Shown here: piece by piece, positions 5,767 to 22,598 of the stretch
Numbering within the stretch: position 1 is the stretch's first letter
Layout of the letters: every line of letters starts with the position of its first letter
Origin: Bradyrhizobiaceae bacterium
GTDB lineage: Bacteria > Pseudomonadota > Alphaproteobacteria > Rhizobiales > Xanthobacteraceae
DNA: 45,784 nucleotides
Assembly: GCA_947479905.1 (NCBI GenBank)
Contig: CANKBJ010000010.1
Coordinates: forward strand, 1-45,784
Direction of reading: 5' to 3'
Program-made: the position numbers and the translations under genes
The notes under the pieces: model-generated
Database searches by the model: none
Told to the model about the DNA's origin: nothing
The model's input: the letters and a program-made list of their open reading frames with translations, nothing else

Positions 5767-5861
5767 GATCGCGCGCGGCGTCGCGCGCTTTGCCGCGCCG
5801 GGTCTGGTGCGCCAGTCAAATACGCCATAGGATTGCCGGCGCAGAAGAAGGACACCGCCGT

Positions 5862-6815
5862 ATGGGCGCTCACCATCTCTTGTCGGCGGACGCCGGCACC
5901 GTGCATCGCGGCACTTTCGATGCCGCTTTTCCCGCCGTCCTGACGGTCAATTCCGGCGACACGGTCGAGATAACGTCCCTGTCCGGAGACTTAGCCGACC
6001 TCCCGCCGGCCGGTTCCGGCTTCACCGTTTCCGCCGCCCATCGCAACGTGCTCGATCGGGTCGCGGCGGGGCTCGGTCCGCATTTCATGACCGGGCCGAT
6101 TGCCGTCAAAGGCGCGATGCCGGGCGACGAATTGATCGTCGACATCCTCGCCGTCGAACTGGCTTTCGACTGGGGCTGGAACCTGATCCGCGCCGGCAAA
6201 GGCACTTTGCCCGATGAATTCCCCAACGAGCGCCGCATGCATATCGGCATCGACCGGGAGCGCCGGGTCGTGAAGATGCCGTGGGGACTGGAGTTGGCCG
6301 CCGCGCCATTTTTCGGCATCATCGGCGTCGCGCCGCCGCCGGGCGATGGGCCGCGGACCTCGGTGATCCCGCGCGCCTGGGGCGGCAATATCGACTGCAA
6401 GCATCTTGGCGCCGGCGCGCGGCTGCATCTGCCGGTGTTCAACGAAGGCGCGCTGCTGTCGGCCGGCGACGGGCACGCGGCGCAAGGAGACGGCGAGGTT
6501 TGCCTCACCGCGGTCGAGACAGGCCTGCGCGGCACTTTGCGGCTCACGGTCGCCAAGGGCACCGGCATTACCGGTCCGTGGGCAGAGACGCCGACCCATA
6601 TTATCGCGATGGCGTTCGACCCCGATCTCGATGTCGCTGCGCAATCGGCCGTCCGCAACATGGTGCGGCTGATCGAACGTCTTGGCGGATTGGCCGCCGC
6701 CGACGCCTATACATTATGCAGCGTCGCCGCCGACGTGCACGTCACGCAACTCGTCAACGTCCACAAAGGCGCGCATGTGATGCTGGCGAAATCGGCGCTG
6801 GGGAACATTATTTGA
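5862..6815 (+). CDS. Acetamidase/formamidase family protein
   Basis: A 317-residue protein from the ATG at 5862, which has AGAAGGA about 12 nt upstream. The frame extends 24 codons further upstream, but those residues (Arg-rich) do not look conserved. Family features include an early HRGTFDAAFPAVLTVNSGDTV strand region and GPIAVKGAMPGDEL. Further on come IDCKHLGAGARLHLPVF, GDGHAAQGDGEVC, and a C-terminal VTQLVNVHKGAHVMLAKS. FmdA/AmdA enzymes hydrolyse formamide or short amides to ammonia and the acid in the cytoplasm. It converges with the cyclic-amide catabolic operon, and its stop codon sits inside the palindrome at 6814. A role in using amides released by that operon is plausible but inferred. 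Confidence 0.88.
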   Translation: MGAHHLLSADAGTVHRGTFDAAFPAVLTVNSGDTVEITSLSGDLADLPPAGSGFTVSAAHRNVLDRVAAGLGPHFMTGPIAVKGAMPGDELIVDILAVELAFDWGWNLIRAGKGTLPDEFPNERRMHIGIDRERRVVKMPWGLELAAAPFFGIIGVAPPPGDGPRTSVIPRAWGGNIDCKHLGAGARLHLPVFNEGALLSAGDGHAAQGDGEVCLTAVETGLRGTLRLTVAKGTGITGPWAETPTHIIAMAFDPDLDVAAQSAVRNMVRLIERLGGLAAADAYTLCSVAADVHVTQLVNVHKGAHVMLAKSALGNII

Positions 6816-6862: not shown

Positions 6863-7954
6863 TCAGCCACGGTTCACAATCAGCGCCACCGGGCCGCCGC
6901 CATCAGGTCCCTGATGCTCGGCGCCGCCGGACACATAAATTTCGGCATGACCGACAAGGCCCGCCAAAGCGCCACAGACAAAGGCGCGCGCATGCCGCGT
7001 TGAGGAGATGTCGCTGTCGTCTAGCATGGTGTGGCGGTTGCCGCGCAGGCGGCCGTCATGGCTGGCCTCGGCTTTGCCGAGCACAGCGACCAGCCGCTGC
7101 CGCTCAGTGGCGTTGAGTTGGCCAGGCGAGGCAAGCCCAAGTCGGGATAGAGCCGTGCGCACTGGCTCGATGTCGATGGCATCACGCATCACCGCGTGAT
7201 CGATGGCGAGCGGCCCGGACCAGTGCGCCGACATGCCGAGAACAACAATCTCATGATTGGTCAGTTCGATGCCCGCCGATGTACTGGCACGGCCGGACCA
7301 CAGATCCCAGTTCGCGCCGATATCGGCATCGCTGACGCGCGCCGCGTCAATTTCACCGAGCGCCACCGCGGCGCCGAGCGCGCTCGCCGCCCGCGACAGC
7401 CCCATCGACTTCAATGTGTCTCGCGTCGCCACCGTGCCGCCTCGCGCGTCGGCTTCGGCCAGCCTTTGCGCCGTCAACAATGGACACTTGATCTGGACAA
7501 AATGAACGCCGTTCGGCTCGGCAATGCCGGCGTCACGCATCGCAGCCCGCACGCCGGCCGCGACCTGCTCGACTTCGCCCATCCGGCCCAACTGCTCGAA
7601 CGGCAGCGCTTCCGTATGCGCGCGGCCGATGGCCAGCGCCGGCGAAGCGTCACCTTCACCCTCGCCGCGCTCGAACACGACCCAATGCGGCGCCATGCCG
7701 CCTTCGGTGCCGCCGGACATGACGAGACAGATGCGATCAGCAGCCTCAACAGGCAGATGCCGGCGAAACAAAGCGGTCAGGCTCGTCGTCGCAAGTCCCC
7801 GGCTGAAGTCGTTGACCAGTCCGTTGCCTTCGGTCTTGCCCAATATCGCCAGCACGCCTTTGGGATCGATGCGGCCGGCGGCAATCGCCGCCTCAATGCC
7901 GGACACATCGTCCGGCGCTTGCGCGGCAATCCGGTGAACCTTGGCAACAGGCAT
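6863..7954 (-). CDS. Ring-opening amidohydrolase (cyanuric acid hydrolase/barbiturase family)
   Basis: A 363-residue protein from the ATG at 7954. A GTG at 7966 would add four residues and overlap the upstream stop. The protein shows the threefold Ser-Lys architecture of the AtzD/TrzD/barbiturase family: K40 (LGKTEGNG), S80 (SGGTEGG), K156 (VQIKCPLL), S226 (ASTSAGIEL), K294 (LGKAEASHDG) and S342 (YVSGGAEHQGPDGGGP). The C-terminal loop resembles the family's metal-binding loop. These enzymes open six-membered cyclic amides such as cyanuric or barbituric acid in the cytoplasm. The two activities cannot be separated by eye; the pyrimidine context favours barbiturate or a related ureide. It is the last gene of the eight-gene operon, 4 bp after the preceding stop. 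Confidence 0.9.
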   Translation of the reverse strand: MPVAKVHRIAAQAPDDVSGIEAAIAAGRIDPKGVLAILGKTEGNGLVNDFSRGLATTSLTALFRRHLPVEAADRICLVMSGGTEGGMAPHWVVFERGEGEGDASPALAIGRAHTEALPFEQLGRMGEVEQVAAGVRAAMRDAGIAEPNGVHFVQIKCPLLTAQRLAEADARGGTVATRDTLKSMGLSRAASALGAAVALGEIDAARVSDADIGANWDLWSGRASTSAGIELTNHEIVVLGMSAHWSGPLAIDHAVMRDAIDIEPVRTALSRLGLASPGQLNATERQRLVAVLGKAEASHDGRLRGNRHTMLDDSDISSTRHARAFVCGALAGLVGHAEIYVSGGAEHQGPDGGGPVALIVNRG

Positions 7955-7958
7955 CGCA

Positions 7959-9404
7959 TCACCCACAATAAAACGCGCCGGTATAATGCTTCCGCAACGC
8001 GGCTTTCAGTTCGGGCATCGCCGCGCGCACGTCCGCCGTGTTTGGATAGGCCGCGCGCAACGCCGCCAGCAATTCCGCTTCGAGCGCCGGCAGATCGACG
8101 CCCGTCACTCTGCCATCGCGCACCACGTCGCGGCCGCCGACGATCAGGCCCTTGACGTGCTTCTGCTTTGCCTTCGCCAGCAACAGATCGAAAGGCGGCA
8201 CCTCCGGCTCGATCAGTTCGGCGGACATTTCTTTCCAGTCAAGAATAAGCAGGTCCGCCGTCGCGCCGACAGTCACAGCCGCGCCCACCTCGCCGGTGAT
8301 GGCAAAGCGGCCATTGGCTATGGCAAAGCGCATCAGGTCATCACGCGACATGCGGATGTCAAAGCCGGACGCCTTGTGCAGCGCATAGGCCAACCGCATC
8401 TCGCGCAAGGCATCCTCGTCCTCATCGAACGACAATCCGTCAAGCCCCATGGCAACGCGGCAGCCGCGCTTGATGAACTCGGCAACCGGCGCGACGCCCG
8501 AACTGACGATAAGGTTCGATGAGGTATTGACGACGATGGTGGCGCCGCGTTCGGCGATCAGCTCCATTTCGGAGGGCCGCAGATAGATGCCGTGCGCCAG
8601 CGACACGCGCTCGTTCAACAGGCCGATCTCGTCGAGATAGCGCACAATGCCTTGCGGGAAATTCCGGTCGGCCCAGTTGCGCTGATACTTGGTTTCCAGC
8701 AGATGCATGTGCACGCGGCGCTTCGTCCGTGCCGAGGCTTCGCCGATCAGCCGCAGCATCGCGTCGGAGCACCACTGCACCCCGGCCGGGCCATACTGCA
8801 CAGTCACGCCCTCGCCTTCGATCTCGGCCGCCACCGTCTCGACCATCGCCACCTGATCGGCAGGCGACAACGGCTTGCGCAAGAAGCGTCGCGTCACGCA
8901 TTCGCAGGCCGACGGCGAAAGCTCCCCCAACAGCGTCTCGTGCGGGTCGTAAACCAGCGGATTGAGATCGCGGCAATGCACGGCAAAAGCCAGCCGGATG
9001 CCGACATCGCGCGCGGCCCTGGCGACAGCCTTCGCCTCGGTGGGAAAATCGGTCAGTCCCTGCACGCGCGTGTAATGCGCCATCACCGAGCCGACGCCGC
9101 CACGCGCAGAGCGGCCGAACGACACCGCGCTGGCGAGATAGGGATCGACCGCCGGGATGAGCGTCAGATAGGGAAGCCACGCTTCCAGCGGCACATCGTA
9201 GCTGCCGACCTGGCTCACCCGCGCAACGCGGGCGTGGTCATGCGCATTGGCCAGCGCCGGCAGAACCAGCGTGCCATTGTCTTGGCTTTGGCCCTGCCCC
9301 ATCGACGCGATCTTGCCGCCGTCGATGACAATCGATTGATTGGCCAAGGCCGCGTCCTGGATGCCAGACAACACCCAGGACGCATTGATTGTTCGTTCGC
9401 TCAT
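7959..9404 (-). CDS. Amidohydrolase-superfamily deaminase/hydrolase (TrzA/AtzB/cytosine deaminase-like)
   Basis: A 481-residue protein from the ATG at 9404, 19 bp after the preceding stop. Upstream in-frame codons overlap that gene and are not conserved. Metal and catalytic residues of subtype III amidohydrolases are visible: H55-D-H57 (NAHDHAR), H234 with E237 (HMHLLE), H271 (LAHGIYL) and D322 (GLDGLSF). A C-terminal beta segment follows (GATADLLILDW, VVRDGRVTGVD). Such enzymes use one Zn or Fe to deaminate or dechlorinate pyrimidines, purines and s-triazines. The neighbouring barbiturase-family gene suggests it prepares the ring (for example by deamination) for opening; the substrate is unknown. 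Confidence 0.85.
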   Translation of the reverse strand: MSERTINASWVLSGIQDAALANQSIVIDGGKIASMGQGQSQDNGTLVLPALANAHDHARVARVSQVGSYDVPLEAWLPYLTLIPAVDPYLASAVSFGRSARGGVGSVMAHYTRVQGLTDFPTEAKAVARAARDVGIRLAFAVHCRDLNPLVYDPHETLLGELSPSACECVTRRFLRKPLSPADQVAMVETVAAEIEGEGVTVQYGPAGVQWCSDAMLRLIGEASARTKRRVHMHLLETKYQRNWADRNFPQGIVRYLDEIGLLNERVSLAHGIYLRPSEMELIAERGATIVVNTSSNLIVSSGVAPVAEFIKRGCRVAMGLDGLSFDEDEDALREMRLAYALHKASGFDIRMSRDDLMRFAIANGRFAITGEVGAAVTVGATADLLILDWKEMSAELIEPEVPPFDLLLAKAKQKHVKGLIVGGRDVVRDGRVTGVDLPALEAELLAALRAAYPNTADVRAAMPELKAALRKHYTGAFYCG

Positions 9405-9423
9405 GACGCTGATAGCTGTGCGC

Positions 9424-10458
9424 TTACATCGCGCCCAGCTTGAGCATGCGCTCGCCCTTAGGCGGCAGGAACGAGCGATCGAAAACATCCTTCGCCGCAG
9501 GCGTGTTTGGCAGCTTGTAGGTCTCGACCAGAAGCTTGATCGCCTTTTCCATGCGCGCGTCGGAGACATCGCCAAGGCCGTTGGCGTCAGTCTCCTTGGA
9601 GACGAAGTGCGTCTTGAGGGCATAGACGAGGCGCTGCGTCTCGATATCCTCGTTCATCAGCGGCTCGACCTTGAGCATTTCCTTGACGCCCGCCGCCGGA
9701 TTGGCCGCAACTTCGATCATTGCCTTGTTCAAGGCCTTGACCAAGCCGGCGACTGCCTTGGGCTTTTCGGCGCGAAGCTGCTTCGAGACCATGATGCCGT
9801 TGGAATAAAGGTCGATCCCGTAGTCGGAGAAATAGAACCAGCGAAAGTCCTTGAGCGGGTCGAGCTTCATGCCGATCAGGTTGGCGTAGCTCGTGACGGT
9901 GAAAATGGCGGAGAAATCGACCTCGCCCTTGACCAGCATCTGCTCCTGAAGGTTTGGCGCCATGTTCAGGACAGACACTTTCGCCGGGTCGATGCCGTTC
10001 TGGCTGGCGAGCGCGGCGAACAGAACGCCGGCGGCACCGCCCGCGGGCGTGCCCATCTTCTTGCCTTCGAGGTCTTTGAGCGTCTTGATCGGGCTGTCGT
10101 TCTTCACGATCAGCGCGAAAGGCGGCGTGTTGTAGATCATGTAGACCATCACCGGCTGCTCGCCCGGCTTGGTGCCGGCGAACTGGATGATGGCGTTCAT
10201 GTCGCCGAAACCGGCGTCATAGGTGCCCGACGCGATGCGCGACACCGTCGCCGCCGAGCCAGTGCCCTGATCGATGGTGACATCGAGACCCTCGGCGTCG
10301 AAATAGCCCTTGTCCTTGGCCATGAAGACATAGGCGTGCAGGCCCTGATACTTCCAGTCCAGCGTGAAGCGGATTTTGGTTTTCTCCTGCGCGCTGGCGC
10401 CCGATACTGCGCAGCACATGGCGATGAGCAACGCTGTACTTACTCTTATGAGTGACAT
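9424..10458 (-). CDS. NMT1/THI5-like ABC transporter substrate-binding protein (first)
   Basis: A 344-residue protein with a Sec signal peptide (cleavage near SGASA-QEK, residue 24). The mature start is typical of THI5-like binding proteins: FTLDWKYQGLHAYVFMAKDK, then GYFDAEGLDV. Family members bind pyrimidines (thiamine precursors), or alkanesulfonates and nitrate in related groups. CAGGAG precedes the ATG by 8 nt. It shares extensive similarity with the binding protein at 14428-15468 (for example YGDYGMDLYSN against FSDYGIDLYSN). It lies downstream of the permease in the same operon. The substrate is inferred to be a pyrimidine-like ring from context. Confidence 0.88.
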   Translation of the reverse strand: MSLIRVSTALLIAMCCAVSGASAQEKTKIRFTLDWKYQGLHAYVFMAKDKGYFDAEGLDVTIDQGTGSAATVSRIASGTYDAGFGDMNAIIQFAGTKPGEQPVMVYMIYNTPPFALIVKNDSPIKTLKDLEGKKMGTPAGGAAGVLFAALASQNGIDPAKVSVLNMAPNLQEQMLVKGEVDFSAIFTVTSYANLIGMKLDPLKDFRWFYFSDYGIDLYSNGIMVSKQLRAEKPKAVAGLVKALNKAMIEVAANPAAGVKEMLKVEPLMNEDIETQRLVYALKTHFVSKETDANGLGDVSDARMEKAIKLLVETYKLPNTPAAKDVFDRSFLPPKGERMLKLGAM

Positions 10459-10506
10459 TGAAAACTCCTGTTGCGGACTGGTGCCGGCACGGCGGGAACG
10501 GACGGC

Positions 10507-11280
10507 TCAACCCATCGCAAATTCGTCTTTGCGATGCGCCCATCCGGTTATTTTCGATTCGATTAGCGAGAAGATCGCGTAGAGAGCGACACCAAGGAAT
10601 GCAAGGATGATCAGTCCGGCAAAGACCAACGGCACATCGAAATTCGACGATGCGATCATCATGACGTTGCCGATGCCCCGGTTGGAAGCGACGGTTTCCG
10701 AGATCACGGTGCCGACGAAGGCGAGCGTCACCGATACTTTCAACGAGGCGAAGAAGAAAGGCATAGTGCGCGGCAGCCCGACGTTCCATAGAATGTCGGC
10801 CTTGGTCGCACGCAACGCACGCATGACATCCTCAAGTTCTGGCTCGGTGGTCGCCAAACCTGTTGCCACGTTGACGACGATCGGGAAGATGCACATGATC
10901 ATCGCGGTCAGCACCGCCGGCACGGTGCCGGCGCCGAACCACAGCACGAAGATCGGCACCACGGCCACTTTCGGGATCGACGCGAATCCGACCAGCAGCG
11001 GATAGGCAACGTCGTAAGCGAGCTTCGATGAACCGATCAGGACGCCGAGCGAAATGCCGATCAGAATGCCAAAGCCGAAGCCGACGAGCGTCGTGTAGAG
11101 CGTTTGCAACGTGTGCGGCCACAGTGCCGGGCCGCGCTGCCACAAGGTGACGATGATCTGGCTGGGCTTCGGCACGATGATATCGCTGACATTGAACAGC
11201 CAGCACAAGGCTTCCCAGAGTACGAAGAAGCCGACAATAAGAACGGCGGACCAGACTTTCCGGCGGGCTTGCGGGCTCAT
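10507..11280 (-). CDS. ABC transporter permease (SsuC/TauC/ThiX type)
   Basis: A 257-residue inner-membrane permease with about six helices. The cytoplasmic loop contacting the ATPase is present (ELEDVMRALRATKADILWNV, then GLPRTMPFF). The ATG at 11280 overlaps the stop of the ATPase gene by one base (TGATG). An alternative GTG lies one codon upstream. It pairs with the ATPase at 11280-12113 and is the only permease for the two THI5-like binding proteins in this operon. Confidence 0.92.
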   Translation of the reverse strand: MSPQARRKVWSAVLIVGFFVLWEALCWLFNVSDIIVPKPSQIIVTLWQRGPALWPHTLQTLYTTLVGFGFGILIGISLGVLIGSSKLAYDVAYPLLVGFASIPKVAVVPIFVLWFGAGTVPAVLTAMIMCIFPIVVNVATGLATTEPELEDVMRALRATKADILWNVGLPRTMPFFFASLKVSVTLAFVGTVISETVASNRGIGNVMMIASSNFDVPLVFAGLIILAFLGVALYAIFSLIESKITGWAHRKDEFAMG

Positions 11281-12113
11281 CACACGGTCTCCTTTACGGG
11301 CCGCTGCGACACGATCAGTTCGCGCAGCCGCTGCGTCATGGATACGAAAGTCGGCGTGTAGGACATGTCGATGGTGCGCGGCCGCGGGAACGGCACGGCG
11401 GCATCGTCGACGATCTGGCCCGGCCGCGTCCGCATGACGCAGATGCGGGTGGCGAGATATCCGGCCTCCTTGAGATCGTGGGTGACGAGCAGCACCGTGG
11501 GCTTAAGTTTCATCCACAGTTCCTGCATGACCGCCCACAATTCCTCGCGGGTGAACTGGTCGAGCGCGCCGAACGGTTCGTCGAGCAGCAGCAATTGCGG
11601 CTCATGGATGAGCGCGCGGCATAGCGAGGCTCGCTGCAACATGCCGCCAGAGAGTTGCCAGGGGTGTTTGTCGCCGAAATTGGCGAGGCCTACTTCTTTC
11701 AGCAGCGCGTCGGCGCGATCGCGAAACTCGGTTTTTTTCTTGGCTCCGTATTCCTGCCGGAACGGCGGCACGATCTTGAGCGGCATCATGACGTTGTCGC
11801 GCACCGTGAGCCACGGCAGCATGGTCGGATTCTGGAACGCCATGCCGACGCGGATCGGCGTGGCCCCGACCTCTCGTCCAGCCACATAGACATAGCCTTC
11901 GGACGCCTTGATCAGCCCGGTGACAAGCTTGAGAATCGTCGACTTGCCGCAGCCGGACGGTCCGACCAGAGCAACGAAGTCGCCCTGATTGACCCGCAGA
12001 TTGGTCAGACCGAGCGCGGTCACTTGCTTGTCGCCGCGCCCATAAGTCAGCGTGACATTTTCCAGTTCGATAAAGGTATCTTCCGTCCTCGGCAGTTCGG
12101 TCGCGGTCGTCAT
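11280..12113 (-). CDS. ABC transporter ATP-binding protein (SsuB/TauB/ThiZ type)
   Basis: A 277-residue ATPase with Walker A GPSGCGKST, signature LSGGMLQRASL, Walker B LLLLDEPFGALD and the switch histidine in LLVTHD. It energises import through the adjacent permease. The ATG at 12113 overlaps the TGA of the upstream hydrolase gene (ATGA), which indicates translational coupling. The closest families are the nitrate/sulfonate/taurine and pyrimidine-precursor importers. Confidence 0.94.
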   Translation of the reverse strand: MTTATELPRTEDTFIELENVTLTYGRGDKQVTALGLTNLRVNQGDFVALVGPSGCGKSTILKLVTGLIKASEGYVYVAGREVGATPIRVGMAFQNPTMLPWLTVRDNVMMPLKIVPPFRQEYGAKKKTEFRDRADALLKEVGLANFGDKHPWQLSGGMLQRASLCRALIHEPQLLLLDEPFGALDQFTREELWAVMQELWMKLKPTVLLVTHDLKEAGYLATRICVMRTRPGQIVDDAAVPFPRPRTIDMSYTPTFVSMTQRLRELIVSQRPVKETV

Positions 12114-13549
12114 GCAATCTGTTCCCTTCGCCCGGCAGAGCGTTGAGCAGTGATCGCTTGCATCGTATGTTCGGCATTGCGGATTTGCGGCGCCGGCATT
12201 TGCTGGATCGTGTGTACCGACCGACCCCAGCCTTTGGTGTCCATCAGCGTGCGGTCCTTCATCACGAAGCGGCCACGCACAATCGTGTGAACGGGCAGGC
12301 CCTTCACCTTGCGGCCGTCCCAGGGCGAAATCTTCGACCGCGACTGGATGTCGGCGTCGCGGATCGTGTGCTCGCGGCCGAGATCGACAATGGCGATGTC
12401 CGCGTCCGAGCCGGGCAAAAGCGCGCCCTTGCGCGGATAAAGCCCCCAGATGCGCGCCGGGTTATAGGCGCTCATGCGCACATAATCCGAAATGGACATG
12501 CGGCCGGCATTCACCTCGGTCAGCATCAAGGGCATCTGCGTTTCGACACCGGGAAAGCCACAGTCCACGGTCCAGATGTCGTTACGGGTTTTCTCCTCCG
12601 GCGCGTGCGGCGCATGGTCGGTGGCGATGACGTCGATAGAGCCATCGAGCAAAGCCTGCCAGATCGGCGCCTGATTGCGCTTCTCGCGCACCGGCGGATT
12701 GACGGCGATGATGCCGGGCACGCGCGTGTAGTCCTCGGTGGACAGCATCAAATAATGCGGACAGGTCTCGCCGGTGATATCGACACCGCGCGCCTTGGCT
12801 TCACGCAACGGGCGCAATTCATCGGCGCTCGAAATATGCAGGACATGGATGCGCGCGCCGGTCCACTCGGCCAAAATCGCGGCGCGGCTGACCGCCTCGA
12901 TCGCGACCACTGGCGGCCGCGCCGCCAGATGCGCGAATTGGTCGTGAATGCCGGCCGCCATCAGCCGCTTCTGCCGCCGCTCCATGATGTCGTTGTTCTC
13001 GGCATGCAGCGACACGCGCTTGCCGCTCGCCGCCGCCACCTCGAACAGTTCCAGCGTCGCGCCGGTATCGGGCGAGGCGATCTTGCCGAACGTGTTGCCC
13101 ATATACAGCTTGAAGCCGATGATGCCGCCGTCGAGCAGTTCCGGCACCGTCGCCAGGTTCTCATCGCCGAGCAGGCCGTAAAGGCCGAAGTCGACATGAG
13201 CTTTCGATGCGGCAATGGCGTGCTTGGCGGCGAGAATCTTGCCGTCAGCCGTCGGCGGAATCGTATTCGGCATGTCGAACACACAGGTGACGCCGCCGAA
13301 GGCCGCCGCCGCCGTGCCGCTTTCCCAGTCTTCCTTGTGCGGATAGCCCGGATCGCGGAAATGCACGTGATCGTCGATGGCGCCGGGCAGAATATGCAGG
13401 CCCGTAGCGTCGAACGTTTCCTTTGCCGGCGGCATGGCTTCGGAGGCGCCGACGGCGAGCACCTTGCCGTCCTTGATGGCGATGCTGGCCTCCAGCACGG
13501 CATCCGGCGTCACCACCCTGCCGTTATGAATGACGAGATCGGCGGACAT
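12110..13549 (-). CDS. Dihydroorotase/allantoinase/hydantoinase-family cyclic amidohydrolase
   Basis: A 479-residue protein from the ATG at 13549; a GTG at 13561 that overlaps the SDR stop is an alternative. Binuclear-metal ligands are all visible: H61 and H63 (DDHVHFRDPG), carboxylated K147 (GFKLYMGN), H182 (SLHAENND), H238 (VLHISSADE) and D311 (IATDHAPH). The HVHFRDPG motif and length place it with class I dihydroorotase, allantoinase and hydantoinase. These enzymes hydrolyse cyclic ureides such as dihydropyrimidines, hydantoins or allantoin. It sits between an SDR and a THI5-type importer, so a catabolic rather than biosynthetic role is likely. The exact substrate cannot be read from sequence. 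Confidence 0.88.
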   Translation of the reverse strand: MSADLVIHNGRVVTPDAVLEASIAIKDGKVLAVGASEAMPPAKETFDATGLHILPGAIDDHVHFRDPGYPHKEDWESGTAAAAFGGVTCVFDMPNTIPPTADGKILAAKHAIAASKAHVDFGLYGLLGDENLATVPELLDGGIIGFKLYMGNTFGKIASPDTGATLELFEVAAASGKRVSLHAENNDIMERRQKRLMAAGIHDQFAHLAARPPVVAIEAVSRAAILAEWTGARIHVLHISSADELRPLREAKARGVDITGETCPHYLMLSTEDYTRVPGIIAVNPPVREKRNQAPIWQALLDGSIDVIATDHAPHAPEEKTRNDIWTVDCGFPGVETQMPLMLTEVNAGRMSISDYVRMSAYNPARIWGLYPRKGALLPGSDADIAIVDLGREHTIRDADIQSRSKISPWDGRKVKGLPVHTIVRGRFVMKDRTLMDTKGWGRSVHTIQQMPAPQIRNAEHTMQAITAQRSAGRREQIA

Positions 13550-13557
13550 GGTGTCGC

Positions 13558-14352
13558 TCACAGCATCGCCCAGCCGCCATCGACCGGCAAATCGATGCCG
13601 GTGAGTTGCCGAGAAACATCGCTCGCCAGGAACAGGCAGGCATAGGCGACGTCGGCATCCTCCGTGACGCGCTTGAGTGCGTAGTCGGCGGCGTGGCGCT
13701 CCATTGCTTCTTCGAGGGTGATGCCGAAGCGCTTGGCCATGTCGGCGCACACCTTGTCGCGGAAGCGCGGGCCGTCGACCATGCCGGGCGCGACATTGTT
13801 GACGTTGATGTTGTACTGGCCGACTTCGAGCGCGAAGCTTTTGGTGATGCCGCGCAGGCCCCATTTCGATGCCGAATAGGCCATGCGGCCGGCGCGGCCG
13901 CGCATGCCGAATGTGCCGCCAACATTAACCACCTTGCCGTAACGCTGCGCGATCATGGTCGGCAGAACGCTGCGCATCGTATGAAAGCAGCCATTCATGT
14001 TGAGCGTGACGATCTCGTCGAATTCCTCCGGCGTCGTCTCGACGCCGGTCTTGCCGACCGGACCGGAGCCGCCGGCGACATTGACCAGAATGTCGATGCG
14101 GTCGCCGAAGGCTTCCCTGGTCTTGGCGGCGGCAACATCGCATTGCGCCGGATCGGTCAGGTCGCATGGCACGATAATGGCCTGCGCGCCCATCTTTTTG
14201 ACTTCAGCGGCGACCGGCTCGATCGCCGAAACATCGCGGCCGAGCAGCGCCAACTTCGCGCCTTCGGCGGCGAAAGCCGTGGTGATCGCCGCCCCCATCC
14301 CCTTGGCCGGGCCGGTGATCATCGCGACCTTGCCTTCGAGATTCAAATTCAT
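13558..14352 (-). CDS. SDR-family NAD(P)-dependent oxidoreductase
   Basis: A 264-residue classical short-chain dehydrogenase. It has the cofactor motif TGPAKGMGAA near residue 14, NVAGG, and the catalytic YSASK. The C-terminus DLPVDGGW is also family-typical. The ATG at 14352 has AAGGTG 6 nt upstream and is preferred over the ATG six codons further upstream. It belongs to the catabolic operon, with a 76-bp spacer to the preceding binding-protein gene that contains a strong hairpin. The substrate is unknown; it could act on a cyclic ureide or on an aldehyde/alcohol product of ring opening. Confidence 0.88.
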   Translation of the reverse strand: MNLNLEGKVAMITGPAKGMGAAITTAFAAEGAKLALLGRDVSAIEPVAAEVKKMGAQAIIVPCDLTDPAQCDVAAAKTREAFGDRIDILVNVAGGSGPVGKTGVETTPEEFDEIVTLNMNGCFHTMRSVLPTMIAQRYGKVVNVGGTFGMRGRAGRMAYSASKWGLRGITKSFALEVGQYNINVNNVAPGMVDGPRFRDKVCADMAKRFGITLEEAMERHAADYALKRVTEDADVAYACLFLASDVSRQLTGIDLPVDGGWAML

Positions 14353-14382
14353 CGCCGCACCTTGAAACACTTCAGGAAGGTG

Positions 14383-14410
14383 GCCGTTCCTCTTGTAAAA
14401 GAGGAACGGC
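14383..14410 (-). terminator. Intercistronic hairpin between binding protein and SDR
   Basis: GCCGTTCCTCTT pairs perfectly with AAGAGGAACGGC around a 4-base loop (12-bp stem). It lies 18 bp after the stop of the first operon gene and 31 bp before the SDR start. No T-run follows on the minus strand. It probably works as a 3'-end stabiliser or partial terminator that raises binding-protein mRNA over the enzyme genes. Confidence 0.7.
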
Positions 14411-14427
14411 TGCGTTTGCGAAAAGCC

Positions 14428-15468
14428 CTAGAAAAGCTTGTGCGGGAGTTCGGCTGCCGGCGGCAGGAACGAACCGTTCCACACTTCGCTGATCGCCGGT
14501 GAGCGGGGCAGCGAAAGCGCATCGACCATGATGTCGATCGACTTCTTGAGCCGCGCTTCGTCGAGATTGCCGAGGCCGATCTTCTTGATCTCGGGATGGT
14601 TCATCTCGTCGGCGAAGGTGGTGTCGAAACGCTCACGCTCAAGTTTGCCGTTGATCAGCGGCTCGCGCTTGGCGACCGCGGCGACCGAGGCTTCCGGATC
14701 CTTGATCGAGTCCTGCATGCCCTTGTTGAGCGCGCGCAGGAAGCCCTTCACCAGTTCCGGCTTTTCCTTGACCATCTTCTTCGGCACGATGATGGCGTTG
14801 GAATAAAGATCCATGCCGTAATCGCCGTACTTGATGTAGCGGATCTTGTCCTCATCGATCTTGGCGAGCTTGGCCGAGAAACGGATGGTGTTGACGTAGC
14901 CGAACACGCCATCGACCTGGCCCTGCATCAGCATGTTCTCGCGCAGGTTCGGCTGCATGTTGGAAAGCTTGACGCCGGTGCAGTCGATCTTGGCGAGCTT
15001 GCAGAAGGCCGGGAACAGCTTGAGCGCGCCGTCATTGGCCGGGCCGCCGATCGATTTGCCTTCGAGGTCCTTGGCGGTCTTGATCGGGCTGTCGGCCTTC
15101 ACCGCGATGGTGAAGGGCGGCTGGTTGTACATGACGTAGACGGCAATCGGCGCGTCTTCCGGTTTCTTCGCCGCCATTTCGATCAGCGCATTCATGTCGC
15201 CGAAGCCGACGTCATAAGTGCCGTTGCCGACCAAAGCCGGCACGCCGCCGGAACCGTTGCCCTGGTCGAGTTGCACCTCGATACCTTCTGCTTTGAAGTA
15301 ACCGCGGTCGTCGGCGAGGAAGAACATCCCCTGCGGACCTTGATATTTCCAGTTCAACACGACTTTCAGCTTGGTTTGGGCTGCCGCGGGCGTAGCCGAG
15401 GCGAGCGGACCGGCAATGCCGATCGCGGCCGCGGCGGCAATCAGCAAGGAACGGGTAGAAATGGTCAT
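14428..15468 (-). CDS. NMT1/THI5-like ABC transporter substrate-binding protein (second)
   Basis: A 346-residue protein from the ATG at 15468, with AGGAGT 7 nt upstream. The frame extends 42 codons further but those are not signal-like. The signal peptide is clear (cleavage near ATPAAA-QTK, residue 30). The mature protein begins VVLNWKYQGPQGMFFLADDR, then GYFKAEGIEV, as in THI5-like proteins. It is the promoter-proximal gene of the operon, divergent from the LysR regulator. A paralogue lies at 9424-10458 in the same operon; with a single permease and ATPase, both probably feed one channel with different substrates. Confidence 0.9.
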   Translation of the reverse strand: MTISTRSLLIAAAAAIGIAGPLASATPAAAQTKLKVVLNWKYQGPQGMFFLADDRGYFKAEGIEVQLDQGNGSGGVPALVGNGTYDVGFGDMNALIEMAAKKPEDAPIAVYVMYNQPPFTIAVKADSPIKTAKDLEGKSIGGPANDGALKLFPAFCKLAKIDCTGVKLSNMQPNLRENMLMQGQVDGVFGYVNTIRFSAKLAKIDEDKIRYIKYGDYGMDLYSNAIIVPKKMVKEKPELVKGFLRALNKGMQDSIKDPEASVAAVAKREPLINGKLERERFDTTFADEMNHPEIKKIGLGNLDEARLKKSIDIMVDALSLPRSPAISEVWNGSFLPPAAELPHKLF

Positions 15469-15572
15469 TGGCGCACTCCTGTTGAGCTTGTGAGGCTTTT
15501 GCGCGCTCGTCCGGCCCGGCCTGCCGTCCGCTCGCGGTATGTCGGCTTTGTCGAAGGATCTCGTCTCGGCGC

Positions 15573-15674
15573 GACCATGAATTGGTCCATGCAAGTGTGG
15601 TGCCGGAAAATCCTAGCCCGGGGCACCGTTGCCATCTGCCGCTGATTTTTTGCTAGAGTGGTGCCGAAAAGGCA
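15573..15674. promoter_or_regulatory. Candidate LysR operator region between the divergent operon and regulator
   Basis: This intergenic stretch holds GACCA-N5-TGGTC (15573-15587). Two direct copies of GTGGTGCCG with a following A-tract lie at 15597-15610 and 15658-15670, 61 bp apart start to start (close to six helical turns). There are also GGTGCC-N17-GGCACC (15599-15627) and TGCC-N5-GGCA (15662-15674). LysR proteins usually bind such interrupted dyads next to their own gene. The right-hand copy is 32 bp before the lysR start. Confidence 0.5.
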
Positions 15675-15701
15675 TCACTCATAAACTGGCGACGGGCCCC
15701 C

Positions 15702-16604
15702 ATGAAGCATCTCCGGATTTTGGATTACGTCGACGCGGTCGCCCGCGCCCGCTCGATCCGCAAGGCCGCCGAACAGCTCAATGTCACAGCCTCGGCGGTC
15801 AACCGGCGCATCGCCGACCTCGAGGAAGAGCTGGGCGCGCTGCTCTTCGAACGCCTGCCGCGCGGCGTCCGCCTGACCGCCGCCGGCGAGGTTTTCGTCA
15901 ATTATCTGCGCAAGCAAGGCGGCGAAGCCGAGCGGATGAAATCGCAGATCGAGGACCTCAAGGGCCTGCGCCGCGGCACCGTGCGGCTCGCCTGCAGCCA
16001 AGCTATGGCGCTGGATTTCTTGCCACGCGCCATCGCCGAATTCCGCAAGACGCATCCTAAGGTCGAATTCGACGTCAAGGTGGTGGATCATGAGTATGCC
16101 ATGGCGGCATTGTCGGCCTTTGAAGTCGATCTGGTGATGGTGTTTCGTCCGCCTTTCATGGCCAATTTTCAACCCTTGATGACGCTCGAGCAGCGGCTGG
16201 TCGCGGTCATGGCGAAGAACCATCCGCTCGCCAGACTGCGCAAATTGCGCCTGCGCGATTGCGCCGCGCATCCGGTCGCCTTGCCCGAACGTTCGATCGG
16301 CGGCCGCCAACTGCTCGACCAGGTCGCGGCCCGCACCGGCCTGACTTTCAACATCGCCGCCGAATCCAACTCCTTTGAAATGCTGCGCGGACTGGCTATC
16401 CATGCAGGACTGCTATCGTTTCAGATCAAGATCGGCACCTTGCAGGACGGCAACAGGTTGGGACTGGTGGCGCGCGAAATCGACGACCGCGACGTGCCAA
16501 GCGCCAAGCTCGTGTTCGGCCAGCTGCGCGAACGCAATCTGCCGGTGGCAACCGCGGTGTTTGCCGAACACATCACGCGCCGCCTGCGAGCGATGCTTCC
16601 TTGA
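15702..16604 (+). CDS. LysR-family transcriptional regulator
   Basis: A 300-residue protein of normal LysR length. The N-terminal helix-turn-helix is at about residues 16-45 (SIRKAAEQLNVTASAVNRRI, then ADLEEELGALLFER). The C-terminal effector domain starts near residue 90 (GTVRLACSQAMALDFLPRAI). It is divergent from the eight-gene hydrolase/transport operon and sits directly before the URC genes. It probably controls one or both sets in response to a pyrimidine or ring-opening product; the effector is inferred only. The ATG at 15702 has a weak ribosome binding site (GACGGG). Confidence 0.92.
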   Translation: MKHLRILDYVDAVARARSIRKAAEQLNVTASAVNRRIADLEEELGALLFERLPRGVRLTAAGEVFVNYLRKQGGEAERMKSQIEDLKGLRRGTVRLACSQAMALDFLPRAIAEFRKTHPKVEFDVKVVDHEYAMAALSAFEVDLVMVFRPPFMANFQPLMTLEQRLVAVMAKNHPLARLRKLRLRDCAAHPVALPERSIGGRQLLDQVAARTGLTFNIAAESNSFEMLRGLAIHAGLLSFQIKIGTLQDGNRLGLVAREIDDRDVPSAKLVFGQLRERNLPVATAVFAEHITRRLRAMLP

Positions 16605-16692
16605 GCATGCTTGGTCTTACTCACAGACTTGCGCTTGGAAAATTAAGGGCTATACTTTTCTTTTAAGGGACGGCTTCATCCAGCCCATCGCG

Positions 16693-16768
16693 GGCCGGTT
16701 TAACGAATGCCGGCCTTTAAAACCGAGTAAGCGCTGAAACGTACTGGCCCGTCCTTCCTGGCGGGCCA
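16693..16768 (+). promoter_or_regulatory. Two hairpins in the URC1 leader
   Basis: GGCCGG-N11-CCGGCC (16693-16715) is followed by TTTAAAA, and TGGCCCG-N10-CGGGCCA (16745-16768) by TATCCTTTTT. They lie between the LysR stop and the URC1 start. The first could terminate the lysR transcript. The second, close to the start and followed by a T-rich run, could be an attenuator. Confidence 0.5.
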
Positions 16769-16809
16769 TATCCTTTTTGCTTCGGCTTATGCTTATGGTT
16801 TTAAAAACA

Positions 16810-18066
<1,257 letters not shown>

Positions 18067-18091
18067 AAGAACCTGTGAGCGGACCTTCCTC

Positions 18092-19327
18092 ATGAATCCC
18101 GAGACGGCCGCGGCCTTTTCTCTTCTGAGCGCCGAGGCCGTCCGCACGCGCGCACAGCATATGCTCACGCTCGGCTTGGACGGCAAACTGCCGAACTTCC
18201 GCGTGGATCTTTCGCAGTTGGACGCCGCCGCCGAACGCGTGATTGCCGTCACACGGCAAAATTATCCGTCACTCGATATTCCATTTCATTCCCGCTGGCG
18301 GCATTTCATCGTTGGTGGCGTCGATCGTTTTGAAAGGATCGCCAGGGCCGCCGGGTTCAAGGACGCCGCCGCCCGCGCGCGCGCTGAATTCGATCTCGCC
18401 ATTATCAGCGTCTTCCTCGATGCTGGCGCCGGCCCGCAATGGCGCTATACCGATCAGGAAAGCGGACAGCGCATCGGCCGGTCGGAAGGCCTGGCGCTGG
18501 CAAGCCTCGACATGTTCATGCGCGGTGCGTTTTCAGCCGATGCCGCGCAGCCTTTGCGCGTCGATGCGTCCGTGCTCGCCCATCTCAGCGCCGACCAGTT
18601 GGCGCAAGGGTTTCGTGTAAACGCGGACAATCCGCTGGTCGGTCTCGAAGGCCGCGCCGCGCTGCTGCGCCGGCTCGGCGCATTGATTGCCGAGAGCCCA
18701 GGCGTCTTTGCCCAGAATGACAGCGCGCGGCCCGGCGGCCTGTTCGATCATCTCGCCGCTTCGGACGACGGCAAGAGCATCGCCGCGCCGGAAATTTTAT
18801 CCGAACTGTTGCATGAATTGGGACCGATCTGGCCGTCGCGCATCACGCTGGGCGGCATCCCGCTCGGCGATTGCTGGCGACACCCGGCGATGAAAACGTC
18901 CGACGCGACGAACGGACTCGTACCGTTGCACAAACTGTCGCAGTGGCTGGCCTATTCGCTCATCGAGCCACTGCAACGGGGAGGGCTGAAAGTCACCGAT
19001 ATCGACGGTCTGACGGGATTGGCTGAATACCGCAACGGCGGATTGTTCGTCGACAGCGGCGTGCTCGTCTTGCGCGATCCATCGCAAGCCGCGCGCGCGC
19101 AAGACGCCGGCTCCGAACTCGTCGTTGAATGGCGCACATTGACTGTCGCGCTGCTCGACCGCCTCGCCGCGACCGTTCGCGAACGGTTGAAGATGGACTC
19201 GCACACATTGCCGTTGGCAAAAATTCTCGAAGGCGGCACCTGGGCGGCCGGCCGCGCCATCGCCCTTGAAAAACGGCGAGATGGCACACCGCCGATTACC
19301 GTCACCAGCGACGGCACAGTCTTTTAG
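18092..19327 (+). CDS. urc4: DUF1688 protein, URC4 family (uracil catabolism)
   Basis: A 411-residue protein from the ATG at 18092, 25 bp after URC1. The frame stays open upstream, but that part overlaps URC1. It shows the DUF1688 signature near residues 279-325: [16 protein letters not shown], then [17 protein letters not shown]. An early HSRWRHF segment is also present. No signal peptide or membrane segment is seen, so it is cytoplasmic. URC4 proteins are genetically required for the URC route of uracil breakdown in yeast; the chemical step is not firmly established. In bacteria the gene is commonly found beside a URC1-like gene and a UPRTase, as here. Confidence 0.88.
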
Positions 19328-19344
19328 CGATCAGGAGAAATCTT

Positions 19345-19974
19345 ATGGAAGGCGTTACCGTCGTCGACCATCCTTTGGTTCAGCACAAGCTCACGTTGAT
19401 CCGCGACAAGAACCTGTCGACCAAGTCGTTTCGCGAACTCCTGAGCGAGATTGGCATGTTGCTTTGCTACGAAGTGACGCGCGATCTGCCGCTGGAAATG
19501 GTGGAGATCGAGACGCCGCTGGCACGCATGCAATCGCCGGTGCTCGCCGGCAAGAAGCTCGTCTTCGCGCCGATCCTGCGCGCCGGCCTGACTTTCGCCG
19601 AAGGCATGCTCGATCTCGTGCCGGCGGCGCGCATCGCGCATATCGGCCTTTACCGCGAACCGGAAACCTTCGCCGCGGTCGAATACTTTTTCAAAGCGCC
19701 GTCCGATATCGCCGAGCGTCTGGTCATCGTGATTGTGCCGGTTCTCGCCACCGCCAACACCGCCGTCGCGGCCGTCGATCGCTTGAAGGAGCATGGCGCG
19801 CGCGACATCCGCGTCGTCTGCCTGGTCGCCGCGCCGGAAGGTATCGAGCGGCTGCGCGGCATTCATCCGGATGTGCGCATCTGGACGGCTGCTATCGACG
19901 GCGGATTGAACGAGCAGGCATTTATTGTCCCCGGTCTTGGCGACGCCGGGGACCGCGCCTATGGGACGAAATAG
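19345..19974 (+). CDS. upp: Uracil phosphoribosyltransferase with altered PRPP loop
   Basis: A 209-residue protein of exact UPRTase length, with AGGAGA 8 nt before the ATG. Conserved parts include [16 protein letters not shown] (18-33), PILRAGL (76-82), and the uracil-binding C-terminus [20 protein letters not shown]. The enzyme makes UMP from uracil and PRPP, the entry step of the URC pathway. The PRPP signature, normally DPMLATGGS, here reads VPVLATANT (131-139). The acidic residue and one glycine are therefore replaced. The gene is the last of the URC1-URC4-UPRTase set (17-bp gap). It could be a specialised subfamily, a protein with changed activity, or a mutated copy. Confidence 0.85.
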
Positions 19975-20403: not shown

Positions 20404-21465
20404 GTGGCTTCGGTCAAGTTACGCAATCTGACAAAGCGATACGGTCCGCTCGCCGTGGTCGATGACGTCTCGCTCACCATCGAGCACGGCAAGCTTGTCT
20501 GTCTGCTCGGACCGAGCGGTTGCGGCAAGACCACAACGCTGCGGCTGCTGGCCGGTTTCGTCGATCCGAGTGCCGGCGAGATTCTCGTTGGCGATCGGCT
20601 GATTTCGTCGCCGGCCAACACGGTGCCGCCCGAGCGGCGCAACATGTCGATGATTTTCCAGAGTTACGCGCTTTGGCCGCATATGACCGTGGCCGAGAAC
20701 ATCATTTACGGCCTCAAGCTCCGCAAATTGCCGCGCGACGTCATCGGCGCGAAGCTCGACGCCATCCTCGCCACCACCAAGCTCGCAGCCTTGGCCGAAC
20801 GCTATCCCGGCGAATTGTCCGGTGGCCAGCAGCAGCGCGTAGCGCTCGCCCGCGCGCTGATCGTCGAGCCCGAGACCTTGCTGCTCGACGAGCCACTGTC
20901 CAACCTCGATGCCAATCTGCGCGAGGAGATGCGCTTCGAGGTGCGCCGCCTGCACGACACCTATCGCTACACGACTGTCTATGTCACGCACGACCAATCG
21001 GAAGCGATGACGACCGCCGACGTGATCTGCGTCATGAACGGCGGCAAAATCGAACAGGCCGGGTCGCCTGAGGAAATCTACGACCGGCCGCGCTCGGAAT
21101 TTGTCGCCCGCTTCATCGGCTCCAGCAATGTCGTCAAGGGCAAGGGCCTGGACGGCGGCCGCATCGAACTCGCCGGCATCGCCCTGCGGTGCAGCGGCGA
21201 ATCCGTCGTGCCCGGCGCGCCGACCGCGGTGTCGATCCGCCCGCACGGCATTACGCTGAGCGCCACGCCGCCGCAAAATGCCGATAATGTTTTGCCCGCC
21301 ACCGTGGTGCGCCAGGTCTTTCTCGGCGACAGCCGGGATTATATGGTTGAACTCAAGGACGGCACCCAATTGCGCACTGTCACCGCGCCGGCCGATAATA
21401 TCCCGCATGGCAGCGCCGTGTGGCTGCATCTGCCGGCCGAACGTTGCCGTGCGCTGACGGGTTAG
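20404..21465 (+). CDS. ABC transporter ATP-binding protein (PotA/FbpC type)
   Basis: A 353-residue ATPase that starts at GTG 20404, with GGGGGAG about 10 nt upstream. Motifs are Walker A GPSGCGKTT, Q-loop FQSYALWPHMTV, signature LSGGQQQRVALARAL, Walker B LLLDEPLSNLD and switch YVTHDQSEA. A C-terminal TOBE-like domain starts near residue 240 (VVKGKGLDGGRIELAG). It energises the transporter whose binding proteins and permease follow. The family includes spermidine, Fe3+, phosphonate and sugar importers, so the substrate is not indicated by this subunit. Confidence 0.94.
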   Translation: MASVKLRNLTKRYGPLAVVDDVSLTIEHGKLVCLLGPSGCGKTTTLRLLAGFVDPSAGEILVGDRLISSPANTVPPERRNMSMIFQSYALWPHMTVAENIIYGLKLRKLPRDVIGAKLDAILATTKLAALAERYPGELSGGQQQRVALARALIVEPETLLLDEPLSNLDANLREEMRFEVRRLHDTYRYTTVYVTHDQSEAMTTADVICVMNGGKIEQAGSPEEIYDRPRSEFVARFIGSSNVVKGKGLDGGRIELAGIALRCSGESVVPGAPTAVSIRPHGITLSATPPQNADNVLPATVVRQVFLGDSRDYMVELKDGTQLRTVTAPADNIPHGSAVWLHLPAERCRALTG

Positions 21466-21469
21466 ACGA

Positions 21470-21485
21470 TTTCGCGGGGGCGAAA
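21470..21485 (+). terminator. Short intercistronic hairpin
   Basis: TTTCGC-GGGG-GCGAAA forms a 6-bp stem right after the ATPase stop, followed by AACAA. It may protect or partly terminate the ATPase message ahead of the binding-protein genes. Confidence 0.35.
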
Positions 21486-21526
21486 AACAAAGGCAACACT
21501 AGGCCGCGACCTGGGAGGAGACCTCG

Positions 21527-22594: not shown

Positions 22595-22598
22595 TCCC

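What the first reader, a model, noticed from the sequence alone, without database searches (positions are those of the whole stretch)
6863..19974. Composite pyrimidine/cyclic-ureide catabolic island: URC module plus ring-opening hydrolase operon around one LysR regulator
Seen directly: eight minus-strand genes (two THI5-like binding proteins, ATPase, permease, SDR, dihydroorotase-like hydrolase, TrzA/AtzB-like amidohydrolase, cyanurate hydrolase/barbiturase-family enzyme) are divergent from lysR, and URC1, URC4 and UPRTase follow on the plus strand. Known: THI5-like proteins bind pyrimidines, barbiturase opens barbiturate, and URC1/URC4/UPRTase degrade uracil by way of UMP in yeast. Inference: this locus imports pyrimidines or related ureides and opens the ring by both a hydrolytic and a nucleotide-based route. 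I know of no described system that combines the two.
Basis: partly seen in the sequence, partly recalled or inferred. Interest (0 to 1): 0.85.

Follow-up and report, generated by a model that had tools for sequence, protein, structure and literature searches.

The report
Two linked nitrogen-ring breakdown modules
A soil bacterium carries, side by side, a known gene set for breaking down uracil and an apparently undescribed import-and-hydrolysis operon for some other nitrogen-containing ring; a remote-homology match suggests what the unexplained uracil-pathway protein URC4 does.

Summary
The genes are as described. They look like two separable modules, not one system.

Module A, divergent from lysR: SBP1-SDR-dihydroorotase-like hydrolase-ATPase-permease-SBP2-amidohydrolase-AtzD, with FmdA beside it. 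It recurs as a unit; outside Pseudolabrys, URC is seen beside it in 3 of 19 stretches. Its AtzD is of the cyanuric acid hydrolase type, not barbiturase: three Ser-Lys dyads and Arg188 in 38 of 38 operon rows. SBP1's nearest folds are thiamin/pyrimidine-type proteins. Substrate unknown.

Module B (URC1-URC4-UPRTase) has its own conserved upstream region, shared by loci without lysR. Genome co-occurrence is enriched (21 of 25 SDR-marker genomes carry DUF1688, 86 of 372 others; uncorrected for phylogeny) but not obligatory (11 of 20).

Most interesting: URC4 (DUF1688) appears remotely homologous to the queuosine-phosphate N-glycosylase Qng1/DUF2419. All 11 fold hits at E<=0.001 and all 4 profile hits in the PDB are that family; DUF2419 Lys199/Asp231 align with URC4 Lys281/Glu312. 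Prediction: URC4 cleaves phosphoribosyl-urea to urea.

The parts
5790..6815 (+). FmdA: acetamidase/formamidase-family amidase (likely start about 5862); recurs beside or inside the operon
   Evidence: PF03069 E 2.7e-32; recurrence
6863..7966 (-). AtzD: cyanuric-acid-hydrolase-type ring-opening amidohydrolase
   Evidence: PF09663 2.9e-148; NCBIfam CyanAcHdlAtzD 562 bits, cut-off 360; closest PDB 4nq3; three Ser-Lys dyads and Arg52/188/314
7959..9404 (-). AmhA: metal-dependent amidohydrolase (AtzB/TrzA/deaminase superfamily), substrate unknown
   Evidence: PF01979 1.1e-31; no NCBIfam cut-off met among the 23 families listed; closest PDB 4f0r E 7.8e-23
9424..10458 (-). SBP2: NMT1/THI5-like periplasmic binding protein
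   Evidence: PF09084 3.7e-39; closest PDB by sequence 4nmy E 1.2e-18, then Thi5
10507..11283 (-). ABC permease
   Evidence: PF00528 1.1e-25
11280..12113 (-). ABC ATPase
   Evidence: PF00005 7.9e-32
12110..13549 (-). Hyd: dihydroorotase/allantoinase-like cyclic ureide hydrolase with dihydroorotase-type HxHxR, MPNT and DHAPH motifs
   Evidence: motif alignment with the genome's own paralogues and 62 rows of over 48% identity
13558..14370 (-). SDR: short-chain dehydrogenase with Gly at the usual catalytic Ser position (motif VGGTFG...YSASK)
   Evidence: PF00106 1.5e-50; closest PDB 3-hydroxybutyrate dehydrogenase 6zzq; motif in the 41 rows counted, duplicates of genomes included
14428..15594 (-). 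SBP1: NMT1/THI5-like periplasmic binding protein
   Evidence: PF09084 8.5e-41; AF2 model pLDDT 82.6; best fold hits 4nmy, 3ix1, Thi5
15702..16604 (+). LysR regulator, recurs divergent from the SBP1-SDR-Hyd operon
   Evidence: PF00126/PF03466
16629..16657 (+). promoter-like TTGCGC-17-TATACT of the URC operon, similar upstream of URC1 in loci without lysR (read by eye)
   Evidence: alignment, sequence; the automatic consensus scan did not call it
16745..16768 (+). leader hairpin followed by a T-rich stretch, upstream of URC1
   Evidence: 1 found; shuffles mean 1.7, so not above chance by itself; similar hairpins in relatives
16813..18066 (+). URC1: GTP cyclohydrolase II homologue of the uracil catabolism pathway
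   Evidence: PF12471 6.6e-79; NCBIfam PRK07198 744 bits; CX10CXC in 35 of 35 rows
18092..19327 (+). URC4 (DUF1688): predicted nucleotide N-glycosidase, remote homologue of DUF2419/Qng1
19345..19974 (+). uracil phosphoribosyltransferase (URC6-type)
   Evidence: PF14681 2.4e-71; NCBIfam upp over cut-off

Best explanation
Two adjacent nitrogen-scavenging modules, probably transcribed separately (inferred). Module A (shown: gene set, conservation, catalytic motifs; inferred: regulation, substrate, order of steps): the divergent LysR switches on an ABC importer with two THI5-fold binding proteins. It brings in a pyrimidine-like or cyclic-ureide ring. Hydrolases of the amidohydrolase, dihydroorotase-like and CAH-type AtzD families open rings, the SDR makes one redox change, and FmdA (or, in other genomes, a RutB-like isochorismatase) removes a terminal amide or carbamoyl group. 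Module B: UPRTase converts uracil to UMP, URC1 opens the ring of UMP, and URC4 cleaves the N-glycosidic bond of the resulting phosphoribosyl-urea (inferred from homology to Qng1 plus the published ribosylurea intermediate), releasing urea for the genome's urease. The modules serve different substrates and share a nitrogen pool. They are adjacent in Pseudolabrys and a few relatives.
For: Gene families. Module A as a unit: 29 of the 80 AtzD loci L101-L180 hold SDR, Hyd and AtzD together; of the 19 of these outside Pseudolabrys, 3 show URC in the stretch. AtzD active site of CAH type, 38 of 38 operon rows. Hyd metal ligands and dihydroorotase-type motifs in the commonest variants. SBP1 fold. URC upstream region also in loci lacking lysR. 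URC4-Qng1: 11 of 191 fold hits at E<=10 reach E<=0.001 and all are DUF2419 chains; the only 4 profile hits at E<=10 among 177,635 PDB sequences are DUF2419 variants; 3 of 19 members hit Pfam Q_salvage at E<=1, best 0.0014, below its gathering score; divergent DUF1688 beside upp in 9 of 9 loci L210-L218 with no URC1 hit in the 12-kb stretch, in apparent nucleoside-salvage operons in the three of these listed (names recalled from sequence). Urease alpha. Ribosylurea as substrate of URC4: PMC7530994, passages. Fission yeast urg1-urg2-urg3 (GTP cyclohydrolase II-like, UPRTase-like, DUF1688) are clustered and uracil-induced: PMC2174524, passage. Co-occurrence.
Against: No substrate, expression or enzyme data. 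The nearest characterised AtzD is a cyanurate enzyme, and cyanurate is not a known natural pyrimidine product. Among the 20 SDR-marker loci fetched from the order, 4 have AtzD, 17 Hyd, 12 SBP1 and 10 LysR, so the core of module A is uncertain. The SDR lacks the usual catalytic Ser. The URC4-Qng1 match is weak in sequence (22 bits whole, best stretch i-Evalue 0.028), the 7-row profile missed it, the fold hits are chains of two proteins, and the Lys is kept in 30 of 41 rows only. Co-occurrence counts are not corrected for phylogeny, and at least 3 of the 7 DUF1688-positive genomes in the comparison set also carry the SDR marker.
Confidence: 0.6

Rival explanations
1. One reading: one integrated pyrimidine island. 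The importer brings in uracil or a related pyrimidine, and the hydrolytic operon and URC open the same ring by two routes under one LysR.
For: Adjacency in 12 of 36 genomes of the genus and in L107, L109, L115. In L109 the URC block is inverted but still next to lysR. Genome co-occurrence 21 of 25 against 86 of 372. Within the genus the 15 genomes where module A was found all have DUF1688, against 8 of the other 21 (p 9e-5, but linked genes are gained and lost together). SBP1 nearest to thiamin/pyrimidine-type proteins.
Against: 9 of 20 genomes with the operon outside Pseudolabrys gave no DUF1688 hit (several are MAGs); URC loci exist without the operon; URC1 has its own upstream region; AtzD is CAH type.
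Confidence: 0.17
2. Module A is a cyanurate/s-triazine utilisation operon: AmhA deaminates an aminotriazine, AtzD opens cyanurate, and biuret is finished by an unlinked BiuH-like enzyme.
For: AtzD of CAH type, interleaved in the tree with AtzD from biuret loci; one isochorismatase-family gene elsewhere in the genome, 53-56% identical to the Rhizobium BiuH-like pair.
Against: None of the 29 operon loci has a BiuH hit over 33% identity, while 42 of the 80 loci L101-L180 do, all outside the operon set. AtzD is often missing while SDR, Hyd and transporter stay. Hyd and SDR have no place in the triazine route as I recall it.
Confidence: 0.2
3. Adjacency is a neutral by-product of recombination, and the modules have no functional link.
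For: Modules separate freely. Apparent losses: L098 keeps FmdA, a lysR remnant and URC; L118 keeps URC, lysR pieces and AtzD.
Against: Adjacency survives an inversion (L109) and is shared by many genomes; genome-level co-occurrence is above background (uncorrected).
Confidence: 0.3

Closest known systems
URC pathway (Lachancea kluyveri; bacterial linkage of URC1, URC4 and UPRTase is recalled; fission yeast urg1-3 cluster, PMC2174524 passage)
   Same: URC1, URC4 and UPRTase together; urease present in the genome
   Different: URC3,5 urea amidolyase not sought; bacterial setting; own leader hairpin; no experiment here
DUF2419/Qng1 queuosine-5'-monophosphate N-glycosylase
   Same: Fold of URC4, weak sequence match, Lys199/Asp231 aligned
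   Different: Longer protein, Glu (or Asp) for Asp231, different expected leaving group (urea)
Cyanuric acid hydrolase operons with BiuH (Rhizobium leguminosarum type)
   Same: AtzD interleaved in the tree, same active-site residues
   Different: No BiuH or its transporter found in the operon loci; instead SDR, dihydroorotase-like enzyme, THI5-like SBPs, LysR
Barbiturase / oxidative pyrimidine pathway
   Same: Same protein family as AtzD
   Different: Arg188 instead of Gln; no uracil dehydrogenase-like family among the genes scanned, not sought in the genome
ThiXYZ-type pyrimidine precursor importers
   Same: SBP1 fold nearest to thiamin-bound SBP, ThiY and Thi5
   Different: 18-25% identity; ligand unknown; joined to catabolic genes

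Membership tests
Cyanuric acid hydrolase (AtzD) | Three Ser-Lys dyads (S79/K40, S226/K156, S333/K285) | tested here: met
   38 of 38 operon rows (the S226 column was misplaced and redone)
Cyanuric acid hydrolase (AtzD) | Hydrolyses cyanurate | not testable with these tools
   Nearest solved relative 4nq3
Barbiturase | Gln at the Arg188 position (PMC4051656, passages) | tested here: not met
   Arg in 38 of 38 operon rows
URC uracil catabolism | URC1, URC4 and UPRTase linked | tested here: met
URC uracil catabolism | Growth on uracil through UMP and urea | not testable with these tools
   Only urease gene presence checked
DUF2419/Qng1 superfamily (URC4) | Fold match to DUF2419 | tested here: met
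   E 3.9e-7, TM 0.71 by target length; all 11 hits at E<=0.001 are DUF2419 chains
DUF2419/Qng1 superfamily (URC4) | Sequence match at family cut-off PF10343 | tested here: not met
   18.7 bits against 25; PDB profile hit E 4.7e-4
DUF2419/Qng1 superfamily (URC4) | Lys199/Asp231 equivalents | tested here: inconclusive
   Aligned to K281 and E312 (numbering from 18092); K 30 of 41, E 30 and D 11 of 41
Allantoinase (AllB) | TIGR03178 cut-off | tested here: met
   365.8 against 357.85 bits
Allantoinase (AllB) | Allantoinase-like motifs in place of dihydroorotase HxHxR, MPNT, DHAPH | tested here: not met
   Hyd has the dihydroorotase-type motifs; meaning of the motifs recalled
Biosynthetic dihydroorotase (PyrC) | Only dihydroorotase of the genome, with pyr genes | tested here: not met
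   Two other hits over the pyrC_multi cut-off elsewhere, one beside a gene that reads like ATCase (by eye)
Classical SDR | Ser-Tyr-Lys triad | tested here: not met
   Tyr and Lys kept, Ser position Gly in 41 of 41 rows
THI5-like pyrimidine SBP | Fold of ThiY/Thi5 | tested here: met
   First 21 hits are chains of thiamin-bound SBP, ThiY and two Thi5 proteins, TauA at rank 22; 1323 hits at E<=0.001 in all
THI5-like pyrimidine SBP | Binds a pyrimidine | not testable with these tools
   -

The most novel reading that the evidence does not exclude
URC4/DUF1688 is a Qng1-family nucleotide N-glycosidase that releases urea from phosphoribosyl-urea, and beside it sits an undescribed, widely conserved alphaproteobacterial pathway for a pyrimidine-like or ureide ring, with a Ser-less SDR, a dihydroorotase-like opener and exchangeable terminal amidases, that feeds the same urea/ammonia pool.
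Probability: 0.45. Interest if true: 0.75.

Novelty: new variant of a known kind. Interest (0 to 1): 0.6.

Why it matters
URC4 still carries the name 'unknown function' in Pfam. A link to Qng1 gives a concrete substrate, residues and assay, and a testable role for the divergent DUF1688 genes beside upp in another family. The module A operon gives cyanuric-acid-hydrolase-type enzymes a genomic setting other than triazine waste: the natural substrate of a family often treated as a xenobiotic enzyme could be sought by growth tests on a cultured Pseudolabrys, Skermanella or Azospirillum.

Tried and rejected
Barbiturase reading of AtzD: rejected on Arg188. Hyd as the biosynthetic dihydroorotase: unlikely, other candidates exist. 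Rfam family upstream of URC1: none in the window at gathering score; the best weak match was ROSE_2 at 20.8 bits against 65. The leader shares blocks among relatives, but covariation was not tested. Sequence search of the PDB with the 7-row URC4 profile found no DUF2419; the 19-row profile did. Q_salvage in 249 genomes of the phylum: no match, and no control rang either, so no conclusion. Five loci of family f16 (called Kaistia-type because one, G328, has the same DUF1688 coordinates as the named Kaistia dalseonensis genome) carry a gene beside the SDR that in L188 is a 2-oxoglutarate oxygenase; thymine dioxygenase is among its relatives but ethylene-forming-type enzymes score better, so no thymine route is claimed. 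Literature: ten searches brought up no paper on the operon or on a DUF1688-DUF2419 link. The four papers holding 'DUF1688' do not hold 'DUF2419' or 'queuosine' (find only); of those holding DUF2419 I searched only PMC11592518 for DUF1688 (0 occurrences). The library is open-licence only; Seffernick 2012 and the Qng1 structure paper are not held, so a prior report elsewhere is possible.
Full report
Observation. A gene was missed: an acetamidase/formamidase-family amidase (FmdA) at 5790-6815. The window belongs to a 3.79 Mb, 266-contig genome, 86.85% complete. Its genus is taken as Pseudolabrys from the names of near relatives.

Conservation of the arrangement. I took 36 genomes of the genus (own plus 35) and 24 others of the order. 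In 12 of the 36, module A and URC lie in one fetched stretch, with parts of module A missing in some: L068 and L073 lack AmhA and SBP2, L069 lacks AmhA, L090 lacks AtzD, AmhA and SBP2, L091 is cut. In G010 both are present but apart; in G012 and G035 contig ends prevent judging. So module A was found in 15 of 36 (a lower bound, since I looked only beside AtzD and URC); all 15 have DUF1688, against 8 of the other 21 (p 9e-5, but linked genes move together). Outside the genus the adjacency recurs in L107, L109 and L115; in L109 the URC block is inverted relative to lysR. L118 keeps URC, pieces of lysR and AtzD only; L098 keeps FmdA, a lysR remnant and URC. These look like deletions.

Module A is a unit of its own. 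Of 444 AtzD-related stretches in named genomes the best 80 were kept. Of these 80, 29 hold SDR, Hyd and AtzD together, 42 hold a BiuH homologue (Rhizobium leguminosarum type) and none holds both sets; nine hold neither, two of them (L108, L144) being cut stretches of the operon. Ten of the 29 I take as Pseudolabrys, some from matching contig lengths only; of the other 19, 3 show URC in the stretch. Hosts include Xanthobacteraceae, Rhodoplanes, Methylobacterium, Azorhizobium, Aquabacter and Skermanella. Using the SDR as a marker (E<=1e-85), 25 of 397 genomes of the order have it. Twenty of these were fetched: 17 have Hyd, 12 SBP1, 10 LysR, 4 AtzD and none URC in the stretch. On a Skermanella rosea plasmid the full set including FmdA and a DUF3830 gene is annotated. 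On an Azospirillum plasmid AtzD is absent and Hyd lies opposite. In other loci an isochorismatase-family gene, in L107 closest to RutB, sits between lysR and SBP1. In 49 loci entered, 11 have it, 18 have FmdA and none has both (chance 0.003 if loci were independent, which they are not). The two amidases may replace each other.

Enzymes of module A. AtzD is of the cyanuric acid hydrolase type: NCBIfam 562 bits against a cut-off of 360, closest to the Azorhizobium enzyme 4nq3. In 104 rows, the Ser-Lys dyads and Arg52, Arg188, Arg314 are kept in all 38 operon rows; the 52 other rows of that type keep them too, so they do not separate operon from biuret-type enzymes. The passages I read of PMC4051656 give Gln at position 188 for barbiturase and say barbiturate inhibits, and is not cleaved by, cyanuric acid hydrolases. 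In the tree the operon and other AtzDs are interleaved: 7 label changes for the operon rows, shuffled mean 31. Hyd passes the allantoinase AllB cut-off narrowly (365.8 against 357.85) but has dihydroorotase-type motifs HxHxR, MPNT and DHAPH, as does the genome's own dihydroorotase-like L205 (with DHSPH). The commonest variants printed for 62 rows keep them. That these motifs bind a carboxylate is recalled. The SDR has Gly where the catalytic Ser is expected. An AlphaFold model of SBP1 (pLDDT 82.6) matches thiamin-bound SBP, ThiY and two Thi5 proteins in its first 21 fold hits, with TauA at rank 22; the fold is common, with 1323 hits at E<=0.001. A pyrimidine-like ligand is therefore reasonable but not shown.

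Module B. URC1 shows CX10CXC in 35 of 35 rows. It is preceded by a region with a promoter-like TTGCGC-17-TATACT, read by eye, and a hairpin with a T-rich tail at 16745-16768. The automatic promoter scan did not call the former, and terminator-like hits were no more frequent than in shuffles. Yet related upstream regions occur in L089 and L097, which have URC without lysR or the operon in the stretch. So URC need not depend on this LysR. In fission yeast the matching genes urg1, urg2 and urg3 are clustered and uracil-induced (PMC2174524, one passage).

URC4. The AlphaFold model (7 sequences, pLDDT 79, pTM 0.81) gave 191 PDB fold hits at E<=10, 11 of them at E<=0.001. All 11 are DUF2419/Qng1 chains (of two proteins, one human), best 3.9e-7, TM 0.71 by target length, 20% identity; the next hit had E 0.29. 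A 19-row profile searched against 177,635 PDB sequences gave 4 hits at E<=10, all variants of DUF2419 (best 4.7e-4; its best single stretch i-Evalue 0.028), with DUF2419 Lys199 aligned to URC4 Lys281 and Asp231 to Glu312. The 7-row profile had found none. Pfam Q_salvage is hit by 3 of 19 members at E<=1, best 0.0014, below the curated score. Lys281 is kept in 30 of 41 rows; position 312 is Glu in 30 and Asp in 11. That K199C and D231N are studied mutants is in the PDB titles. In nine loci of another family a divergent DUF1688 gene stands beside upp with no URC1 hit; in the three listed the neighbours look like deoA, deoB and adenosine deaminase (names recalled from sequence). PMC7530994 (passages) states that URC4 turns ribosylurea into urea, with uncharacterised steps before it. 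Together these suggest that URC4 is an N-glycosidase for phosphoribosyl-urea. The genome has a urease.

Link between modules. In the order sample DUF1688 is in 107 of 397 genomes: 21 of the 25 with the SDR marker and 86 of the 372 others (Fisher p about 1e-9, not corrected for phylogeny; the marker is not always in a full module A). In a second set, DUF1688 is in 11 of 20 genomes with the operon outside Pseudolabrys (L108, a cut stretch, counted in) and in 7 of 29 with other AtzD loci, L118 (positive) set aside (p 0.04). At least three of those seven have the same DUF1688 coordinates as SDR-marker genomes, which weakens them as controls. Nine of 20 operon genomes gave no hit, some of them MAGs, so the link is a tendency.

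Verdict. The integrated-island reading is only partly supported. I favour two neighbouring modules for different ring compounds with a common nitrogen pool. The substrate of module A remains open; the URC4-Qng1 link is the most testable new point.

Noticed in passing
window 16590-16812: Conserved leader upstream of URC1 with a GGCCCGTC...GGCGGGCC hairpin and T-rich tail, seen in many relatives of the family; possible attenuator, no Rfam family at gathering score.
   Followed up: partly
L210-L218: Divergent DUF1688 (27-37% identity) beside upp with no URC1 hit in the stretch; in the three loci listed the neighbours look like nucleoside salvage genes.
   Followed up: partly
L075-L088: Second AtzD type in genomes of the genus (41-44% identity, L088 lower) with Asn at Arg188 and Lys at Arg314 in 13 of 14 rows each: neither typical cyanuric acid hydrolase nor barbiturase.
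   Followed up: no
window 13558-14370: SDR subfamily with Gly at the catalytic Ser position, in 41 of 41 rows counted.
   Followed up: partly
L188, L189, L191, L192, L193: The SDR and Hyd homologues lie near a gene that in L188 is a 2-oxoglutarate/Fe(II) oxygenase; no close relative of the THI5-like transporter (27% SBP1-like hit in L192).
   Followed up: partly
L202: Novosphingobium plasmid: SDR and Hyd homologues near a 2OG-oxygenase-like gene and two genes that look like HyuA/HyuB hydantoinase subunits (read by eye).
   Followed up: no
window 16088-16163: ARAGORN reports a tRNA-Gln inside the lysR coding sequence; probably a false positive.
   Followed up: no
window 20404-27542: A separate plus-strand operon follows: ABC transporter with two binding proteins, MmgE/PrpD and an SDR; not found beside the island in the relatives mapped.
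   Followed up: no
L209: The one isochorismatase-family gene found in the own genome is 53-56% identical to the Rhizobium BiuH-like pair.
   Followed up: partly
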